The position numbers were made by a program, and so were the translations under genes. A stretch of 64,000 nt of DNA from Clavibacter sepedonicus (lineage in GTDB: Bacteria; Actinomycetota; Actinomycetes; Actinomycetales; Microbacteriaceae). The notes below the pieces were generated by a model. It saw only the letters and a program-made list of their open reading frames with translations, searched no databases and had not been told where the DNA came from. The stretch lies in NCBI RefSeq assembly GCF_000069225.1, contig NC_010407.1:3038001-3102000 (forward strand), read 5' to 3'. This document shows positions 990-22,753 of this stretch, piece after piece (position 1 is the first letter of the stretch; every line of letters begins with the position of its first letter).

Positions 990-2538
990 ACGCCCCCGCC
1001 CCGCCCGCCACGCGCGCCCCGCCCGCACCGCCGCCCTGATCGCGCTCGTCGCCGCGTCCGCGCTCGCCCTCAGCGGCTGCTTCGCCGCGAGCCCGGGATC
1101 CACCACGGGAGGCGGCCAGGACGGCGACGCCCGCATCCGCCTCGCCATGCTGCAGCCGCCGCGCTCCGGCCTCACGCCGCTCAGCGACGACGCCTTCAAG
1201 CTCGCGCGCTGGAGCACGGCCGAGACGCTCGTGACCCTCGACGACCTCGGCGACGCGCAGCCGCAGCTCGCCACCGGCTGGACCCGCGTCGACGACCTCA
1301 CCTGGGCCTTCGACATCCGCCCCGACGTGCCGTTCCACGACGGCACGACCCTCACGGCCACGCAGGCCGCCGCCTCGCTCACGGCCGCCGCGACCGCGAG
1401 CCCCAAGCCGCGGATCCTCGACGGCGTCGACCTCACCGCGACCGCGGACGGCGACCGCGTCGTCGTGCGCACCGCGACGCCGGATCCGCTCGTGCCGCAG
1501 CGCATGTCGAGCCCGCAGCTGGCGATCCTCGCGGCCTCCGCGTACGGCGCCGACGGCACGGTCTCGCCCGTCGGCACCGGCACGGGCCCGTTCCGCCTGA
1601 CCGCGGTCGACGGGACGACATCCGCCACGCTCGACCGGTTCGACGGCTACTGGGGCGGGCGGGCCGCGTCCGCCGGCATCGACGTGCGTTTCGTGCCCGA
1701 CGGCACCGCCCGCGCCGCCGCGCTCCGCACGGGCACGGCCGACGTGGTCGAGGCGATCCCGGTTGGCCAGGCCGCCCAGGTTGATCCGCAGCTCCTGCAC
1801 GAGGTCGCCATGCCGCGCACGAACACGCTGTACCTCAACACGCGGACGGGCCCGTTCGCGGACCCGGCCGTGCGCGCCGCCGCCCAGGCCGCGGTCGACC
1901 GCGCCGCGCTCGTCTCCGGCGTCTACGAGGGACGGGCCGACGAGGCCACCGGGCTCCTCGGCCCCGCGCTGCCCTGGGCCGCCGACCTCCGCGACGGCGC
2001 CTCCTACCGCGACGCGCTCGCCGGCCGGGCGACGCCCGCCGAGGTCGACGGCGTGCCGATCACGCTGGGCACGTTCACCGACCGGGCCGAGCTCCCCGAG
2101 GTGGCCGTGCAGCTCGAGCAGCAGCTCGAGGCGGCCGGGTTCCAGGTGACCCAGGACGTGCGCGAGTACCAGTACATCGAGGCCGACGCGCTGGCGGGGA
2201 AGTTCGACGCCTTCATCCTGTCGCGCGCGACCGTGCTCGACTCCGGGGATCCGGCCGCGTACCTGTACAGCGACTTCGCGTGCCAGGGCTCCTTCAACAT
2301 CTCGCAGGAGTGCGACCCCGCGGTCGACCAGGCCCTCGCCGACGCCTCCGCGCTGCCGGCCGGGCCCGATCGCCGCGCCGCGATCATGCGGGTCGAGGCG
2401 CTCGTGCTGGCCGATGACGCCGCCGTGCCGCTCCTGCACGAGCGCGTGATCCAGGGCGAGGCCGCCGGGGTGACGGGCGCCGTGCGGGATCCCCGCGAGC
2501 GCGCGCTCATCACGGCCGACACGCGCGTCGAGCGCTGA
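979..2538 (+). CDS. ABC transporter substrate-binding lipoprotein (SBP family 5, peptide/nickel type)
   Basis: This is the extracytoplasmic binding protein of an oligopeptide/nickel-type ABC importer. The ATG at 979 follows an AAGGA ribosome site and opens an Arg-rich n-region, a hydrophobic stretch and the lipobox LSGC at about residues 31-34, so the protein is a lipoprotein. The body (519 aa) has family-5 landmarks: a WSTAETL start, the motif WAFDIRPDVPFHDGTTLTA, and a C-terminal stretch that recruits a short peptide or metal complex. An in-frame start 99 bases upstream lies inside the MFS gene and would add a poor n-region. The stop overlaps the permease ATG (TGATG). Confidence 0.9.
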   Translation: MPARRPRPARHARPARTAALIALVAASALALSGCFAASPGSTTGGGQDGDARIRLAMLQPPRSGLTPLSDDAFKLARWSTAETLVTLDDLGDAQPQLATGWTRVDDLTWAFDIRPDVPFHDGTTLTATQAAASLTAAATASPKPRILDGVDLTATADGDRVVVRTATPDPLVPQRMSSPQLAILAASAYGADGTVSPVGTGTGPFRLTAVDGTTSATLDRFDGYWGGRAASAGIDVRFVPDGTARAAALRTGTADVVEAIPVGQAAQVDPQLLHEVAMPRTNTLYLNTRTGPFADPAVRAAAQAAVDRAALVSGVYEGRADEATGLLGPALPWAADLRDGASYRDALAGRATPAEVDGVPITLGTFTDRAELPEVAVQLEQQLEAAGFQVTQDVREYQYIEADALAGKFDAFILSRATVLDSGDPAAYLYSDFACQGSFNISQECDPAVDQALADASALPAGPDRRAAIMRVEALVLADDAAVPLLHERVIQGEAAGVTGAVRDPRERALITADTRVER

Positions 2539-4331
2539 TGGGCCGCGCGCGCGACGGGCTCGTCGTCGGGGCGTCCCGCGTCGTCGCGGTCGGCGGCGTC
2601 GTGGCGCTCGTCGGCGCGCTGCCGTGGCTGTCCGGCCGCTCGCCCGAGTACACGATCCTCCGCGCGCGCTACGCCGACCTCGAGGCGACCCCGGAGGCGC
2701 TCGCGTCGGTGCGCGCGCAGCTCGGCCTCGACCGCGGGCCGCTCGCCGTCTCGCTCGACTGGCTCGCGGGCGTCGTCCGCGGCGACCTCGGCACGTCGTG
2801 GATCTCGGGCCGCCCGGTCCTGCCCGGCACCCTCGCCGCGCTCGGCGTCTCGCTCACGCTCATGGCGTTCGCGATCGCGGTCGCCGTAGGGGTCGCGGCG
2901 CTCCTCTGCGCGCCCGCCCTCCGCGACGCGACGCGCGGGCGCCGCGCCCGCGGATCCGGCGCCCTCGCCGCCGCACTCACCGCGCTCCCCGAGTTCCTGC
3001 TCGCGACCGCGCTGCTCGTGGTGGTCGCGGTCTGGCTGCGCTGGGCGCCGCCGTCGGGCTGGGACGGGCCGGCGAACGCGGCGCTCCCGGCGCTCGCCCT
3101 CGGGATCCCCGCGGGCGGGCTCGTCGGCCGCCTCCTCGCCGACGCGATCCAGGCCGCATCCGCCGAGCGCTGGGTCGCCACGTGGGCGATGGCGGGCCTG
3201 CCGCCCACGCGCACGACCCTCGCGGTGCTGCGCCGCGCGCTCCCGTCGGTGCTCGGGCAGGTCGGGCTCGTGCTCGTGGGCCTCACGGGCGGCGCGGTCG
3301 CGGTCGAGCAGGTGTTCGCGATCCCCGGCATCGGCCGCGCGACCCTCGGCGCGGCCAGCAGCCAGGACGTCCCGGCGCTCCAGGCGGGCGTGCTCGCGCT
3401 CCTCGCGGTCGCCGTCGCCGCGGGCGCGCTCGCGGACCTCGCCCGTCGCGCGCTCCTCGGCCCCGCCCTCCGCCTCGGATCCCTGCCCGTGCCCGACGCG
3501 CGCGTCCCCGCCCGGCCGCGCGACGTCGTCGTGCCGGCCGTCGCGGCGGGCCTCCTCGCGGTCATCGTCGTGGCCGGCCTCGCGCGGGATCCCCTCGCCA
3601 CGACCGCGGGCCGCCTCGCCCCGCCCTCGTGGCACCTGCCGTTCGGCGCCGACGCGAGCGGCCGCGACCTCCTCGGCCGGGTCGGCCACGGCGCGGTCAC
3701 GACGCTCGGCACGGCGCTCGTCGTCGTGATCGCGTGCTGCGCGATCGGCCTGGTGCTCGGGCTCCTGCCGCGCGCCGCGCTCGGCCCGATCGAGGTCGCG
3801 AACGCGGCACCGCCGATCCTCGCCGGGATCGTGGTGGCCGCGATCCAGGGCCCGTCGACCGCGGGCGCCGCCATCGCGGTGGCGGCCGTCGGCTGGGCGC
3901 CGCTCGCCGCGCACGCCGGGGCGCTCATGCAGGAGGCGCGCGCGCAGCCGCACGTGCGGATCCTGCCGGTGCTCGCCGTCGGGCGCGCGCGGATCCTCCT
4001 GGTGCACCTGCTGCCCGCCGTCGTGGGTCCCGTGGTGCGCAACGCGATGCTGCGGCTCCCCGGCATCGCCCTCACGCTCGCGGCGCTCGGCTTCCTCGGC
4101 CTCGGCAGCGCGCCGCCGACGCCCGAGTGGGGCCTGATCCTCAGCGAGGGCAGCGCCTACGCGGAGCGCGCCCCGTGGGCGGTCGCCGCCCCCGCGCTCG
4201 CGCTCGTGCTCGCCGCGGTGCTCGCGGTGTCCCTGTCGGCGCACGACCTCACGGGGCTCCTGCGGCGGCGACGCGCATCCGCCGCGGCCGCGCGTCCGGC
4301 GGACGCGACCGCGATGGCTCCCCGGGGCTAG
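2538..4331 (+). CDS. Fused DppB-DppC type ABC transporter permease
   Basis: One 597-aa chain carries both membrane subunits of a dipeptide-type ABC importer. Residues ~1-300 resemble DppB (RAQLGLDRGPLAVSLDWLAG, then RGDLGTS, later FAIPGIGRATLGA). Residues ~330-597 resemble DppC (LPFGADASGRDLLGRVGHGA, then LGLGSAPPTPEWGLILSEG). Normally these are two genes of about 300 codons each. Translation is coupled to the binding protein by a TGATG overlap. No ATPase gene follows, because a convergent gene originally abutted this stop; the ATPase must lie upstream of the window or elsewhere. The TAG stop is part of a CTAG used as target by IS copy 1. Confidence 0.85.
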   Translation: MGRARDGLVVGASRVVAVGGVVALVGALPWLSGRSPEYTILRARYADLEATPEALASVRAQLGLDRGPLAVSLDWLAGVVRGDLGTSWISGRPVLPGTLAALGVSLTLMAFAIAVAVGVAALLCAPALRDATRGRRARGSGALAAALTALPEFLLATALLVVVAVWLRWAPPSGWDGPANAALPALALGIPAGGLVGRLLADAIQAASAERWVATWAMAGLPPTRTTLAVLRRALPSVLGQVGLVLVGLTGGAVAVEQVFAIPGIGRATLGAASSQDVPALQAGVLALLAVAVAAGALADLARRALLGPALRLGSLPVPDARVPARPRDVVVPAVAAGLLAVIVVAGLARDPLATTAGRLAPPSWHLPFGADASGRDLLGRVGHGAVTTLGTALVVVIACCAIGLVLGLLPRAALGPIEVANAAPPILAGIVVAAIQGPSTAGAAIAVAAVGWAPLAAHAGALMQEARAQPHVRILPVLAVGRARILLVHLLPAVVGPVVRNAMLRLPGIALTLAALGFLGLGSAPPTPEWGLILSEGSAYAERAPWAVAAPALALVLAAVLAVSLSAHDLTGLLRRRRASAAAARPADATAMAPRG

Positions 4332-4374
4332 CTGTACTCGGCCGTGACGTTGGTGACACTTCGGGGCGTGTGAA

Positions 4375-4427
4375 GAGGCCTCCTGGCTTGATGGAGCTGT
4401 TCAGTTCAACCATCGCCAGGAGGCCTC
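4375..4427 (+). promoter_or_regulatory. Inverted repeat sequestering the transposase ribosome binding site (IS copy 1)
   Basis: GAGGCCTCCTGGC at 4375-4387 is a perfect 13-base complement of GCCAGGAGGCCTC at 4415-4427, which contains the Shine-Dalgarno AGGAGG and ends one base before the ATG. In a transcript that reads in from outside, the hairpin would hide the ribosome site. A transcript starting inside the loop would escape. This is the arrangement known from other insertion sequences that limit expression by impinging transcription. Confidence 0.75.
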
Positions 4428-4428
4428 G

Positions 4429-5391
4429 ATGTCCCACGCTAATGCCCGGTTGACTGTTCATGGTCGGCTTCTCCTCGTGCGTCGGGTAGTCGAGGATCGT
4501 CGTCCGGTGTCGCATGTGGCTCGCGAGCTCGGGGTGTCGCGTCAGTGCGCGCATCGGTGGGTGGCCCGGTTCCGTCAGGAGGGTGTCGCGGGGCTCGCGG
4601 ATCGGTCCTCGAGACCACGGTCGATGCCGGCGAGGACGAGTCCGGAACAGGAAGGCGCCGTGCTGGCTGCGCGCGCGGAACTTCGGTTCGGGCCCGCCCG
4701 GCTGGCTCCGGTGACGAGCGTTCCGGCCCGCACGATCTCCCGGATCCTGCGCCGGCACGGGGCGCCGCCGTTGGCATGGTTGGACCCTGTAACCGGGGCG
4801 GTGATCCGGGCATCCCGGTCAACGGCGCACCGGTATGAGCACGAGCATCCGGGTGATCTGATCCACGTGGACGTGAAGAAGCTCGGGAGGATCCCGGACG
4901 GAGGCGGCTGGCGGGTCCACGGGCGCAGCGAGCAGGTCCGCGGCCGCGGGATCGGGTTCGATTACGTCCATGCCGCGGTCGATGACCACACCCGTCTCGC
5001 CTACGCGGAGATCCATCCCGATGAGAAAGGCGCGACCGCGGCCGGGTTCCTGACCCGCGCAGCGGCGTACTTCGCCGGGCGCGGGATCACCCGGATCGAG
5101 CGGGTCATCACGGACAACGCGTTCGCCTACCGGCACTCGACCGCGTTCAAGAACGCCGTCCAGGACCTGGGCGCGCGGCAGAAGTTCATCCGCCCGCACT
5201 GCCCCTGGCAGAACGGCAAGGTCGAGCGCTTCAACCGGACCCTCGCGACCGAGTGGGCCTACCGGCAACCCTTCACCAGCAACCAACACCGGGCCGACGC
5301 GCTTGACCCCTTCATCGAGCACTACAACACTGAACGGATCCACTCGAGCCACGGGCTGACGCCCGCGGCCCGAGTGTCACCAACGTCATGA
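4429..5391 (+). CDS. IS481-family transposase (IS copy 1)
   Basis: A 320-aa DDE transposase that cuts and joins the element's ends. Residues ~1-60 form an HTH region (VVEDRRPVSHVARELGVSRQCAHRW), followed by a second winged segment near residue 100 and the rve integrase core. The catalytic acids are seen as D148 (IHVDVKKLG), D229 (VITDNAFAY) and E266 (QNGKVERFNRTL). Length and motif order match the family. It is identical at protein level to copy 3 and differs from copy 2 mainly in the N-terminal ~125 residues. It appears intact. Confidence 0.95.
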   Translation: MSHANARLTVHGRLLLVRRVVEDRRPVSHVARELGVSRQCAHRWVARFRQEGVAGLADRSSRPRSMPARTSPEQEGAVLAARAELRFGPARLAPVTSVPARTISRILRRHGAPPLAWLDPVTGAVIRASRSTAHRYEHEHPGDLIHVDVKKLGRIPDGGGWRVHGRSEQVRGRGIGFDYVHAAVDDHTRLAYAEIHPDEKGATAAGFLTRAAAYFAGRGITRIERVITDNAFAYRHSTAFKNAVQDLGARQKFIRPHCPWQNGKVERFNRTLATEWAYRQPFTSNQHRADALDPFIEHYNTERIHSSHGLTPAARVSPTS

Positions 5392-5401
5392 CCCAGTACA
5401 G

Positions 5402-6331
5402 CTAGGCCCCGGGCGCCAGCAGCGCCGCGATCACCAGCAGCACCGGGATCGACGCGACCGTCGTGATCAGCACGGTGTCGCGCGCGAGCACCACGCCGCG
5501 CTCGTAGCGCGACGCGAAGTTGAAGATGTTCTGCGCGGTCGGCAGGCCCGCGATCACGGTCGCGGCGAACGTCTGCGGCGCATCGAGGTGGAACGCGAAG
5601 CGCGCCAGCAGGAACGCGGCGAGCGGCATGACCACCGTCTTGATCACCGAGGCCACGACGATCTCGCCGCGACCGGATCCCGGCGCGAGCGGCTTCCGGC
5701 CCACCAGCGACATGCCGAACGCCATCAGCACGATCGGGATCGCCGCGCCGCCGATGAGCCGGAAGGGCTCGTAGATCGCATCGGGGACCTGGAGCCCGGT
5801 GATCGCGATGAGGATGCCGAGCACCGACGCGATGATCATCGGATTGCGCAGCGGCTGGGTGAGGATCCCGACCACCGACGCGGAGCCGCGGCTCGCGATG
5901 TCGAGGATCGTCAGCGTCGTCGGCGCGAGCACGAGCAGCTGGAGCAGCAGCACGGGCGCGACGTACTGCGCGTCGCCGAGCACGTAGATCGCGACCGGCA
6001 GGCCGATGTTGTTGGCGTTCACGTAGCTCGCCGAGGCCGCGCCGATGGTGGTCTCGGCGACCGGCCGGCGGAAGAGGATCCGCGCCACGACCAGGTAGAG
6101 GATCGCCGAGACGGCCACCGCGCTCGCCGACGTCAGCAGGAACGTCGAGAACACGACGTGCAGGTCGGCCTTCGCGAGCACCGTGAACAGCAGCGCGGGC
6201 GTCGCGACGAAGAACGCGACCCGGTTGAGGGAGTGCTGCGCGCCCGGCCCTGCGATGCCCGAGCGGCCGACGCCGTAGCCCACGGCGATGATGAAGCCGA
6301 TGATGGCGAAGCCGGTCAGCACCCCGATCAT
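5402..6331 (-). CDS. AEC-family (auxin efflux carrier-like) transporter
   Basis: A 309-aa integral membrane protein with about ten hydrophobic segments and the N-terminal pattern GVLTGFAIIGFIIAVGYGVGRSGI typical of bacterial AEC carriers, which move malate or other small carboxylates. A conserved polar stretch YVNANNIGLPVAIYVLG lies near residue 110, and PTAQNIFNFASRYE near residue 275, both usual in the family. Its TAG stop is the reverse-strand reading of the CTAG at 5402-5405, so it originally overlapped the stop of the ABC permease. It is divergent from the phosphatase gene. The real substrate is unknown. Confidence 0.85.
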   Translation of the reverse strand: MIGVLTGFAIIGFIIAVGYGVGRSGIAGPGAQHSLNRVAFFVATPALLFTVLAKADLHVVFSTFLLTSASAVAVSAILYLVVARILFRRPVAETTIGAASASYVNANNIGLPVAIYVLGDAQYVAPVLLLQLLVLAPTTLTILDIASRGSASVVGILTQPLRNPMIIASVLGILIAITGLQVPDAIYEPFRLIGGAAIPIVLMAFGMSLVGRKPLAPGSGRGEIVVASVIKTVVMPLAAFLLARFAFHLDAPQTFAATVIAGLPTAQNIFNFASRYERGVVLARDTVLITTVASIPVLLVIAALLAPGA

Positions 6332-8268: not shown

Positions 8269-8311
8269 CTGTACTCGGCCATGACGTTGGTGACACTTCG
8301 GGGCGTGTGAA

Positions 8312-8364
8312 GAGGCCTCCTGGCTTGATGGAGCTGTTCAGTTCAACCATCGCCAGGAGGCCTC
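8312..8364 (+). promoter_or_regulatory. Inverted repeat over the transposase ribosome site (IS copy 2)
   Basis: The same 13-base perfect inverted repeat as in copy 1: GAGGCCTCCTGGC at 8312-8324 and its complement at 8352-8364, ending one base before the ATG at 8366. It is conserved although the adjoining coding region has diverged, which argues that the hairpin matters. Confidence 0.72.
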
Positions 8365-8365
8365 G

Positions 8366-9328
8366 ATGTCCCACGGTAATGCTCGTCTGACGGTTCACGG
8401 GAGGGTTCTCCTCGTGCGGCGGGTGGTGGAGGATCGTCGGCCGGTCGCGCACGTCGCGCGGGAGCTGGGGGTGTCGCGGCAGTGCGCGCATCGATGGGTG
8501 AACCGGTTCCGTGCCGAGGGGCTGCGAGGGCTGACGGATCGGTCATCGCGGCCCCGGTCAGTACCGAGGCGAACGAGCCCGGAGCGGGAACGGGCCGTGC
8601 TGGAAGCGCGGGCCCAGTTGCGGGCGGGTCCTGCGCGGCTGGCGCCGGTGACAGGTGTTCCATCCCGTACGATCTCCCGCATCCTGCGCCGGCACGGGGC
8701 GCCGCCGTTGGCATGGTTGGACCCCGTCACCGGGGCCGTGATCCGGGCATCCCGGTCAACGGCGCACCGGTATGAGCACGAGCATCCGGGTGATCTGATC
8801 CACGTGGACGTGAAGAAGCTCGGGAGGATCCCGGACGGAGGCGGCTGGCGGGTCCACGGGCGCAGCGAGCAGGTCCGCGGCCGCGGGATCGGGTTCGATT
8901 ACGTCCATGCCGCGGTCGATGACCACACCCGTCTCGCCTACGCGGAGATCCATCCCGATGAGAAAGGCGCGACCGCGGCCGGGTTCCTGACCCGCGCAGC
9001 GGCGTACTTCGCCGGGCATGGGATCACCCGGATCGAGCGGGTCATCACGGACAACGCGTTCGCCTACCGGCACTCGACCGCGTTCAAGAACGCCGTCCAG
9101 GACCTGGGCGCGCGGCAGAAGTTCATCCGCCCGCACTGCCCCTGGCAGAACGGCAAGGTCGAGCGCTTCAACCGGACCCTCGCGACCGAGTGGGCCTACC
9201 GGCAACCCTTCACCAGCAACCAACACCGCGCCGACGCGCTTGACCCCTTCATCGAGCACTACAACACTGAACGAATCCACTCAAGCCACGGGCTCACGCC
9301 CGCGGCCCGAGTGTCACCAACGTCATGA
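8366..9328 (+). CDS. IS481-family transposase (IS copy 2, diverged N-terminus)
   Basis: A 320-aa DDE transposase with the same catalytic triad positions as copy 1 (D148, D229, E266). The N-terminal HTH part differs at many residues (for example MSHGNARL, HVARELGVSRQCAHRWVNRFRAEGLRGLTD), while residues from about 125 on are identical except for one or two. The frame is intact, so it may be active. The mosaic is probably the product of recombination between two IS lineages. Confidence 0.93.
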   Translation: MSHGNARLTVHGRVLLVRRVVEDRRPVAHVARELGVSRQCAHRWVNRFRAEGLRGLTDRSSRPRSVPRRTSPERERAVLEARAQLRAGPARLAPVTGVPSRTISRILRRHGAPPLAWLDPVTGAVIRASRSTAHRYEHEHPGDLIHVDVKKLGRIPDGGGWRVHGRSEQVRGRGIGFDYVHAAVDDHTRLAYAEIHPDEKGATAAGFLTRAAAYFAGHGITRIERVITDNAFAYRHSTAFKNAVQDLGARQKFIRPHCPWQNGKVERFNRTLATEWAYRQPFTSNQHRADALDPFIEHYNTERIHSSHGLTPAARVSPTS

Positions 9329-10599
9329 CCCAGTACATCTAGCAGCAGCTCGACGACAGGCGTCTGGAGCGCCGACTCCAGTTCGACGGCGACCGCGCGG
9401 AACACCGCGGGCAAGGCCGCAGCCACCTGCCGCCCCCACTCCAGGAACGCCTCCCCGTCGAGGCCGGCCTCACGACCGACAGCAGCCCATTGGAATGCCC
9501 CCATGTCCCCCACTCCGTAGGAGTCGACTAGTCGCGATGCCATGTGAGTCCCTTCGATCGCGGAGAGCACGTCGTCCGACCGGCTCCCGGCGGGAGAGAC
9601 GTAGGGAAGGTACGAGGAGGCATCGTAGATCGGAGCTAGATCGAATCCCGTCGGCCAACGCCTCAAGGAGTAGTTCTTTCCGTGAGCATCTGTGTTGAGC
9701 ACCATCCACGAGAACAGCAGGTACTTCATGAACCGCTCCTTGGCTGGGGCCCGAACCTCGTGCTCATCGATTCGATCCAGCAGCTCGAGGATCGTGCGCA
9801 CGCTGGGCCCACCGCGCTCCTCGAACTTTCGGAAAGCGGGAAGACCAAGCGCCTGCACGAGATCCTCTTGGTGGATGCGCGTGACGAATCCGCGCTCGTC
9901 TGCGCGCCGGTCGAATCTGGCGACGACGAGTGAGTGCTGATCAGTGAACGAGCTGATCTCCGTCGATGCCGCGCTCAACCCCAGCACCGCGGCAGAGGTC
10001 ATGGTCACGTGTTCGACGATCTCGGCGTCCACCAGATTTCGAACCCGGGGCTTGAAGATGTGCGTGGACGGCTGCACGCCTGTCGGCTCGTGACATCTGC
10101 CGTCGGACCATGCCAACGCGAATTTGCCTTGCGCGCCGGCAAGCGAGAACTGACCCGGTCGAGCCGGAGCCCCGTCTCCTTCGCCTACGTCCCTGTCCTC
10201 TCGGATCGCTCGAATGCGGTCTGCGATCTGGGCTTCCGTCAGCGCCTCCAAGGAGCCTTCCATTCTCGCCGGATGCCCTTCGGGATGGAATTCCAGTGCG
10301 CCCGCCACGTCAGCCCCATGGGAGCTGAGGAGGTGGAACGGCTCTACGGACCCGGAGTCGTTCTCTCGTGACCACGATCTTCGAACCGCGTCGTCCTCAG
10401 GAAGCAGGTTGTCCAAGAAGCGCAGGACCGGTGCTCCCGTGTGCACGCGGCGCAGCGTCGGCAACGACAGCGAGATCGACGGGCCTCCGGTGGCGAACCA
10501 TTCAGCCTCGTAGACCAGGCGATATCGCAGGGGCGCAGTCCTCTCCAGCTTCGCCGCCAGTCGCCCGTAGAGGAATACATCAAGCACTCGCGTGCTCAT
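9259..10599 (-). CDS. hipA: HipA-like serine/threonine kinase toxin, C-terminus replaced by IS sequence
   Basis: A HipA-type kinase toxin, whose family phosphorylates GltX or other targets and causes growth arrest. It has HipA_N (residues ~1-100, DVFLYGRLAAKLERTAPLRY), the kinase core STHIFKPR, the catalytic loop LNTDAHGKNYSL and the metal motif LAPIYDASSYLPY. The native protein ended in about 21 residues now stranded at 8203-8268. The present frame instead runs from CTAG into IS copy 2 and ends in an IS-encoded tail (DVLGHDVGDTRAAGVSPWLEWIRSVL) at 9259. All catalytic motifs remain, so activity is possible. It overlaps hipB by four bases (ATGA). Confidence 0.88.
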   Translation of the reverse strand: MSTRVLDVFLYGRLAAKLERTAPLRYRLVYEAEWFATGGPSISLSLPTLRRVHTGAPVLRFLDNLLPEDDAVRRSWSRENDSGSVEPFHLLSSHGADVAGALEFHPEGHPARMEGSLEALTEAQIADRIRAIREDRDVGEGDGAPARPGQFSLAGAQGKFALAWSDGRCHEPTGVQPSTHIFKPRVRNLVDAEIVEHVTMTSAAVLGLSAASTEISSFTDQHSLVVARFDRRADERGFVTRIHQEDLVQALGLPAFRKFEERGGPSVRTILELLDRIDEHEVRAPAKERFMKYLLFSWMVLNTDAHGKNYSLRRWPTGFDLAPIYDASSYLPYVSPAGSRSDDVLSAIEGTHMASRLVDSYGVGDMGAFQWAAVGREAGLDGEAFLEWGRQVAAALPAVFRAVAVELESALQTPVVELLLDVLGHDVGDTRAAGVSPWLEWIRSVL

Positions 10600-21589: not shown

Positions 21590-21620
21590 GGGGTTCCTCC
21601 TCGCATCTAGGTGTACTGAG

Positions 21621-22583
21621 TCATGACGTTGGTGACACTCGGGCCGCGGGCGTCAGCCCGTGGCTCGAGTGGATCCGTTCAGTGTTGTAGTGCTCGATGA
21701 AGGGGTCAAGCGCGTCGGCGCGGTGTTGGTTGCTGGTGAAGGGTTGCCGGTAGGCCCACTCGGTCGCGAGGGTCCGGTTGAAGCGCTCGACCTTGCCGTT
21801 CTGCCAGGGGCAGTGCGGGCGGATGAACTTCTGCCGCGCGCCCAGGTCCTGGACGGCGTTCTTGAACGCGGTCGAGTGCCGGTAGGCGAACGCGTTGTCC
21901 GTGATGACCCGCTCGATCCGGGTGATCCCGCGCCCGGCGAAGTACGCCGCTGCGCGGGTCAGGAACCCGGCCGCGGTCGCGCCTTTCTCATCGGGATGGA
22001 TCTCCGCGTAGGCGAGACGGGTGTGGTCATCGACCGCGGCATGGACGTAATCGAACCCGATCCCGCGGCCGCGGACCTGCTCGCTGCGCCCGTGGACCCG
22101 CCAGCCGCCTCCGTCCGGGATCCTCCCGAGCTTCTTCACGTCCACGTGGATCAGATCACCCGGATGCTCGTGCTCATACCGGTGCGCCGTTGACCGGGAT
22201 GCCCGGATCACCGCCCCGGTTACAGGGTCCAACCATGCCAACGGCGGCGCCCCGTGCCGGCGCAGGATCCGGGAGATCGTGCGGGCCGGAACGCTCGTCA
22301 CCGGAGCCAGCCGGGCGGGCCCGAACCGAAGTTCCGCGCGCGCAGCCAGCACGGCGCCTTCCTGTTCCGGACTCGTCCTCGCCGGCATCGACCGTGGTCT
22401 CGAGGACCGATCCGCGAGCCCCGCGACACCCTCCTGACGGAACCGGGCCACCCACCGATGCGCGCACTGACGCGACACCCCGAGCTCGCGAGCCACATGC
22501 GACACCGGACGACGATCCTCGACTACCCGACGCACGAGGAGAAGCCGACCATGAACAGTCAACCGGGCATTAGCGTGGGACAT
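21621..22583 (-). CDS. IS481-family transposase (IS copy 3)
   Basis: A 320-aa DDE transposase, identical in amino-acid sequence to the transposase of copy 1. The triad D148, D229, E266 and the N-terminal HTH are intact. The start is an ATG at 22583 preceded by the RBS-sequestering inverted repeat. Confidence 0.95.
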   Translation of the reverse strand: MSHANARLTVHGRLLLVRRVVEDRRPVSHVARELGVSRQCAHRWVARFRQEGVAGLADRSSRPRSMPARTSPEQEGAVLAARAELRFGPARLAPVTSVPARTISRILRRHGAPPLAWLDPVTGAVIRASRSTAHRYEHEHPGDLIHVDVKKLGRIPDGGGWRVHGRSEQVRGRGIGFDYVHAAVDDHTRLAYAEIHPDEKGATAAGFLTRAAAYFAGRGITRIERVITDNAFAYRHSTAFKNAVQDLGARQKFIRPHCPWQNGKVERFNRTLATEWAYRQPFTSNQHRADALDPFIEHYNTERIHSSHGLTPAARVSPTS

Positions 22584-22584
22584 C

Positions 22585-22637
22585 GAGGCCTCCTGGCGAT
22601 GGTTGAACTAGACAGCTCCATCAAGCCAGGAGGCCTC
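22585..22637 (-). promoter_or_regulatory. Inverted repeat over the transposase ribosome site (IS copy 3)
   Basis: GAGGCCTCCTGGC at 22585-22597 and GCCAGGAGGCCTC at 22625-22637 form the same 13-base stem as in copies 1 and 2, read on the minus strand and ending next to the ATG. The loop of this copy has two changed bases (GAACTAGACAG against GAACTGAACAG), so the stem is more conserved than the loop. Confidence 0.72.
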
Positions 22638-22753
22638 TTCACACGCCCCGAAGTGTCACCAACGTCACGGCCGAGTACATCTAGGCCGGTCGGTCGACCG
22701 GCTCTCCCTCCCGGTCTACTCCGACGCGCGCAGCCGCGGCCTCGACGCCGAGA

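What the first reader, a model, noticed from the sequence alone, without database searches (positions are those of the whole stretch)
4328..5405. IS481 elements sit in CTAG that serves as the shared stop codon of two convergent genes (copy 1)
The ABC permease stop TAG is in CTAG 4328-4331; the AEC transporter stop is the reverse reading of CTAG 5402-5405. Removing the element and one CTAG restores two genes whose stop codons overlapped, inside an 8-bp GC hairpin (cccggggcTAGgccccggg). CTAG is rare within high-GC coding DNA but contains TAG on both strands, so targeting it steers insertion to ends of convergent genes and costs the host nothing.
Basis: seen in the sequence. Interest (0 to 1): 0.7.

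Follow-up and report, generated by a model that had tools for sequence, protein, structure and literature searches.

The report
Jumping element lands at gene ends
A common mobile DNA element of this plant-associated bacterium inserts at the four letters CTAG, which in GC-rich genomes survive mostly in stop codons and between genes, so it tends to land at gene ends; but the copy singled out here joins two genes that were brought together by a later genome rearrangement.

Summary
The history inferred is wrong. The target duplication is 6 bp (NCTAGN), and copy 1 has gCTAGc left, gCTAGg right. In 0 of 12 and 0 of 17 Clavibacter relatives are the two genes neighbours. Both missing halves flank one other copy (C2:248747-249814), and re-paired hexamers match. 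Copy 1 is an IS x IS recombination junction; the hairpin is a chimera.

The general idea partly holds. CTAG is nearly banned from genes (0.019/kb; 2.39 expected). Of 56 intact insertions (this element and an 86% relative), 38 touch a stop and 7 sit at shared convergent stops, against 63 and 5 of 142 CTAGs in an element-free relative. Insertions prefer G/C three bases outside CTAG: a wobble position at stops, often T in promoter -10 boxes. Against that relative's CTAGs with G/C at both +-3 the excess vanishes; against the two host genomes' own, an excess at stops remains. CTAG supplying stop codons is already published for TnRErm46. "Costs the host nothing" is not shown.

The parts
4333..5400 (+). 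IS481-family insertion sequence (very likely IS1121), copy 1
   Evidence: inverted ends, 1068 bp, one of 71 full copies in the genome
4429..5391 (+). transposase, 320 aa, ends with TGA inside the right inverted repeat
   Evidence: Pfam LZ_Tnp_IS481 and rve_3
4333..4359 (+). left terminal inverted repeat
5374..5400 (-). right terminal inverted repeat
4327..4332 (.). left target hexamer gCTAGc
   Evidence: equal to the left hexamer of copy C2:248747
5401..5406 (.). right target hexamer gCTAGg, not equal to the left one
   Evidence: equal (reverse complement) to the right hexamer of copy C2:248747
2538..4331 (+). ABC permease gene; stop TAG in the left CTAG
5402..6331 (-). AEC-type transporter gene; stop TAG in the right CTAG
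8270..9337 (+). second copy in the window, equal hexamers TCTAGC
21612..22679 (-). third copy in the window, equal hexamers TCTAGG

Best explanation
Copy 1 is one product of recombination between two IS481-family copies. One had inserted at the stop-codon CTAG shared by the ABC permease gene and a convergent gene of about 98 aa; the other at the stop-codon CTAG of the AEC transporter gene. A single inversion between copy 1 and the oppositely oriented copy C2:248747-249814 would restore both ancestral junctions. The general stop-codon bias comes mainly from the target: CTAG is nearly absent inside genes of this GC-rich genome, so CTAGs are stop codons, -10 promoter boxes or other spacer DNA; and insertions prefer G or C three bases outside CTAG. 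In the stop frame that base is the wobble position of the penultimate codon, almost always G/C here, whereas -10 boxes (CTAGNNT) put a T there. Shown by sequence: the junction history, the CTAG distribution, the +-3 preference. Inferred: that the +-3 preference belongs to the transposase and not to selection on survivors, and that it accounts for most of the bias.
For: Unequal hexamers. 0 of 12 permease orthologues have the transporter downstream, 0 of 17 transporter orthologues have the permease, within the up to 1.5 kb held. Downstream DNA of both genes in relatives matches the two flanks of C2:248747 (96% from G003 and 91% from L097; 82-96% over the eight queries), and re-paired hexamers are equal. 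7 of 12 relatives have the permease stop CTAG shared with a small convergent gene. CTAG in genes 0.019/kb against 2.39 expected; 63 of 142 CTAGs at stops in G008. A/T at -3: downstream of genes 1 of 45 occupied against 18 of 74 G008 half-sites, in genes 0 of 15 against 5 of 12, so not only promoter avoidance. G/C at both +-3: 49 of 56 intact insertions, 71 of 142 G008 CTAGs, of which 57 are at stops. STOP/STOP among 38 copies with unequal hexamers: 4 seen, 6.2 expected from random joining. A second species with a second element shows the same stop bias.
Against: A stop effect remains after adjusting for local sequence: odds ratio 1.82 (1.10-3.02) against G008 and 3.05 against unoccupied CTAGs of G000 and G003; against CTAGs with G/C at both +-3 of G000 and G003 any-stop is still enriched (p=0.001 and 0.012). 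So the context rule may not explain everything. Unequal hexamers alone do not prove recombination: copies 708875 and 1552626 have unequal ones although both flanks map to one site in G008. My gene calls come from a home-made codon model. Half-sites are not independent. The G008 background is 580 kb of one relative.
Confidence: 0.82

Rival explanations
1. One reading: one insertion into a CTAG that was the shared stop of the permease and transporter genes.
For: Both flanking genes do stop in the CTAG; 7 of 56 intact insertions are at shared stops.
Against: Unequal hexamers, no adjacency in 12 and 17 relatives, original partners found at another copy.
Confidence: 0.03
2. Stop bias is the result of purifying selection: insertions at gene ends survive, those in genes or promoters are lost.
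For: Half-sites facing a gene start with A at -3 (the -10 box position) are under-occupied: 9 of 62 against 48 of 129 in G008.
Against: In-gene half-sites are not under-occupied (15 of 212, against 12 of 284 in G008), and A/T at -3 is avoided also downstream of genes and inside genes.
Confidence: 0.2
3. The transposase or its target complex senses gene ends beyond the DNA letters, for example through transcription or translation termination.
For: Residual odds ratio 1.8-3 after adjusting for local letters; any-stop enriched against CTAGs with G/C at +-3 of G000 and G003.
Against: The residual depends on the background: against G008 CTAGs with G/C at +-3 there is none (57 of 71 at stops there, 36 of 49 matching insertions).
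Confidence: 0.08

Closest known systems
IS1121 of Clavibacter sepedonicus (IS481 family)
   Same: The review PMC9190974 (passages) gives 68 chromosomal + 2 + 1 plasmid copies; here 71 full copies, 68 + 2 + 1 on three replicons, chromosome of 3,258,645 bp.
   Different: No reference sequence of IS1121 was at hand; the name, and its place in the IS481 family, rest on copy number, genus and recall.
TnRErm46 / ISRe46 of Rhodococcus equi (PMC6794481; passages and section 10 seen)
   Different: In what I saw of it: no background count, no shared convergent stops, no preference outside CTAG; its transposase ends in the target's TAG, this one in TGA inside the element.
ISLxc2 / ISLxx4 of Leifsonia xyli (PMC2516522, passages)
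   Same: IS481 family, NCTAGN duplicated on insertion.
   Different: Transposase stop lies within the duplicated target.
IS-associated rearrangements without target duplications (PMC11708052, passages)
   Same: Missing duplications discussed as a trace of recombination between copies.
   Different: IS5 and an IS481-family element of other hosts; that paper argues for cases without IS-IS recombination.

Membership tests
IS481 family | DDE transposase with IS481 leucine-zipper/HTH and integrase core | tested here: met
   Pfam LZ_Tnp_IS481 2.5e-15, rve_3 2.1e-19
IS481 family | about 1 kb, terminal inverted repeats, single transposase frame | tested here: met
   67 of 71 copies 1068 bp, 4 of 71 1069 bp; 27-bp ends; the frame was looked at in copy 1
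IS481 family, CTAG-targeting branch | 6-bp NCTAGN target duplication | tested here: met
   25 of 63 CTAG-flanked copies in G000 (7.7 expected by chance) and 32 of 41 in G003 (6.4 expected; 2 of the 41 are repeats of a redundant contig end) have equal hexamers
IS1121 | sequence identity to the named element | not testable with these tools
   no reference copy held; copy number agrees
insertion into a shared convergent stop (copy 1 as read) | both flanks from one ancestral site | tested here: not met
insertion into palindromes or hairpins | excess of inverted repeats round the target | tested here: not met
   mean complementary pairs in 8, centred on CTAG: 2.47 at 57 intact sites, 2.32-2.49 at unoccupied CTAGs, 2.98 (sd 0.17) when flanks of the 57 are re-paired at random

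The most novel reading that the evidence does not exclude
A purely local target rule, G/C-N-N-CTAG-N-N-G/C, works as a gene-end finder in GC-rich genomes: it uses codon wobble composition to separate stop-codon CTAGs from promoter -10 CTAGs, which would let such elements reach high copy number at little cost, and should hold for CTAG-targeting IS481 elements in other GC-rich hosts.
Probability: 0.3. Interest if true: 0.55.

Novelty: already known. Interest (0 to 1): 0.33.

Why it matters
It corrects a tempting misreading: in a genome reshuffled by its own insertion sequences, the two sides of a copy cannot be taken for one ancestral site without relatives. It also gives a simple, countable reason why CTAG-targeting elements gather at stop codons in GC-rich bacteria, and a prediction (G/C at +-3) that can be tested on any IS481 data set.

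Tried and rejected
Rejected: the permease/transporter pair as ancestral neighbours. Rejected: palindrome or hairpin targeting. Rejected as sufficient: unequal hexamers alone as a proof of recombination (searches show two copies against it). Changed on the way: the first background (unoccupied CTAGs of G000 and G003) made the stop bias look 5-fold (odds ratio 5.1); against an element-free relative it is 2.5 (chromosomal half-sites only). The first detection of right ends in G003 found only 17 of 41 copies and was replaced; the +/- orientation labels are unreliable and not used. Two G003 plasmid copies proved to be repeats at a contig end and were dropped; still count them (57 intact sites, 216 half-sites). 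Eight G000 ends without CTAG were left out of half-site fractions. Background CTAGs within 1500 bp of a piece end were left out of the half-site background. A first codon model was contaminated and replaced. A search of the family (36 of 249 genomes with a match, G000 included) gave a table only and was not analysed for target sites. One search scored only 40 of 222 candidates, so copies were counted by end patterns instead and then in the fetched DNA.
Full report
The sequence. The window lies at C2:3038001-3102000 of a 3.40-Mb genome in three contigs; C2 has 3,258,645 bp. With 71 full copies of the element it fits Clavibacter sepedonicus and IS1121 (68+2+1 copies in PMC9190974, passages); species and element names are my inference. 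The element at 4333-5400 has a 320-aa IS481-type transposase and CTAG on both sides; the ABC permease gene (2538-4331) and the AEC transporter gene (5402-6331, minus strand) each end with the TAG of one of these CTAGs.

Target duplication. For 70 copies and then all 71 I compared the bases round both CTAGs. 63 of 71 have CTAG on both sides; 25 of these 63 have the same hexamer NCTAGN on both sides, against 7.7 expected by chance. In G003, another Clavibacter with an 86% identical element, 32 of 41 copies have equal hexamers against 6.4 expected; two of the 41 are repeats of a redundant contig end, so 31 of 39 unique. So the duplication is 6 bp, as published for ISLxc2 (PMC2516522, passages) and TnRErm46 (PMC6794481, passages). 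Copy 1 has gCTAGc and gCTAGg.

Copy 1 is a recombination junction. Twelve relatives have a close permease orthologue (about 90-96% identity) and in none does the transporter lie in the 1.5 kb held beyond it. Seventeen relatives have the transporter and in none does the permease lie in the flanks held, up to 1.5 kb. Ten of the relatives carry both on one contig: by the coordinates they are 0.41-0.59 Mb apart in eight and 2.7 Mb apart (linear) in two. In 7 of 12 relatives the permease ends in CTAG and a convergent gene of about 98 aa has its stop in the same CTAG. In 13 of 17 the transporter ends in CTAG, with a small gene ending 12-96 bp further on or, in two, sharing it. The DNA beyond the permease in G003 lies, at 96%, on the left side of copy C2:248747-249814, and the DNA beyond the transporter in L097, at 91%, on its right side (other relatives, 82-96%). 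Re-paired, the hexamers are GCTAGC/GCTAGC and CCTAGC/CCTAGC. Copy 1 and that copy point in opposite directions, so one inversion between them would restore both sites. The permease half thus does come from a shared convergent stop, but with another gene, and the hairpin joins two unrelated flanks. Among 38 copies with unequal hexamers, 4 (copy 1 included) have strong stops on both sides; random joining of their halves gives 6.2.

More empty sites. In 580 kb of G008, in which no copy was found, flanks of G000 and G003 copies meet at 13 sites with both halves found, and two more sites have one half; at 11 of the 13 the ends overlap by 6 bp. At five sites the two halves come from different G000 copies. 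Two copies (708875, 1552626) have unequal hexamers although both halves map to one site, so unequal hexamers alone are not proof. CTAG is present in G008 at 10 of the 15 sites; 8 of 10 are at a stop, one of them shared. That shared stop was hit in both G000 and G003 by elements 86% alike; whether independently I did not test. At least one end of 8 of the 41 G003 copies falls on a G000 site.

Where CTAG lies. In G008, CTAG occurs 0.24 times per kb (2.39 expected from base composition): 10 in genes (0.019/kb), 63 at stops (5 shared), 69 between genes. Of 129 half-sites facing a gene start, 48 read CTAGNNT, often about 9 bases before the start codon, as in leaderless -10 boxes (the promoter reading is from general knowledge of actinobacterial TANNNT boxes).

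Where insertions lie. Of 212 CTAG half-sites of unique copies (134 in G000, 78 in G003), 93 are at stops. Unoccupied CTAGs give 68 of 496 in G000, 29 of 248 in G003 and 68 of 284 in G008. Of 56 unique intact insertions, 38 touch a stop, 7 are at shared stops and 10 have an in-gene side; six of the seven shared stops are in G003, one in G000. Against G008 CTAGs (63 and 5 of 142) p is 0.004 and 0.04; with strict gene calls the shared-stop excess is 5 of 57 against 5 of 142, p=0.15.

Why stops. Occupied half-sites have G at -3 in 60% (27% in the G000/G003 background) and A/T in 6% (35%), and richer flanks (78% against 68% GC). The avoidance of A/T at -3 holds downstream of genes (1 of 45 against 18 of 74 in G008) and inside genes (0 of 15 against 5 of 12), so it is not only promoter protection. 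In the stop frame this base is the wobble position of the penultimate codon; GC3 here is 0.96, and 67 of 68 G008 stop half-sites have G/C there. Of G008 CTAGs with G/C at both +-3, 57 of 71 are at stops and 5 are shared; of intact insertions with that context 36 of 49 and 7. All 56 unique intact insertions against this background show no excess (any stop p=0.15, shared p=0.37). A residual stop effect remains in regressions: odds ratio 1.82 (1.10-3.02) against G008, 3.05 against G000 and G003, and any-stop stays enriched against CTAGs with G/C at +-3 of G000 (p=0.001) and G003 (p=0.012). I therefore give the rule most, not all, of the credit.

Cost. CTAG targeting lowers gene hits (10 of 56, with about 86% of DNA coding), but in-gene CTAGs are not spared relative to their number (15 of 212 half-sites against 12 of 284), and IS x IS recombination has rearranged the chromosome. 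'Costs nothing' is not shown.

Prior work. That the CTAG target supplies stop codons and leaves target genes intact is in PMC6794481 (passages and section 10). In the listings of six searches and the passages that I read I saw no count of insertions against the CTAG background, no shared convergent stops and no +-3 preference for this family; most subscription journals are not in that library, and the listings were capped.

Noticed in passing
8270-9337 and 9343-10077 (-): Copy 2 (equal hexamers TCTAGC) sits at the 3' side of a HipA_C-domain gene whose frame runs into the element without a stop.
   Followed up: partly
G000, all copies: Two groups of the element among the 40 scored candidates: nine copies (copy 1 included) 98-100% identical to copy 1, the other 31 full-length ones about 93%.
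   Followed up: no
G000 C2:1929601: A lone inverted-repeat end with CTAG outside and no partner end, perhaps a remnant.
   Followed up: no
G000, 8 of 142 ends: Ends without CTAG outside, as after adjacent deletions.
   Followed up: no
G008 1-580000: CTAGNNT is common about 9 bases before start codons, as leaderless -10 boxes; CTAG thus has two notable homes, stops and promoters.
   Followed up: partly
G003 contig C3: Two copies repeat at a spacing of 48,669 bp in a 67,694-bp contig, suggesting a circular plasmid assembled with redundant ends; an ungapped comparison of the two ends gave 76% identity, so there is at least a shift.
   Followed up: partly
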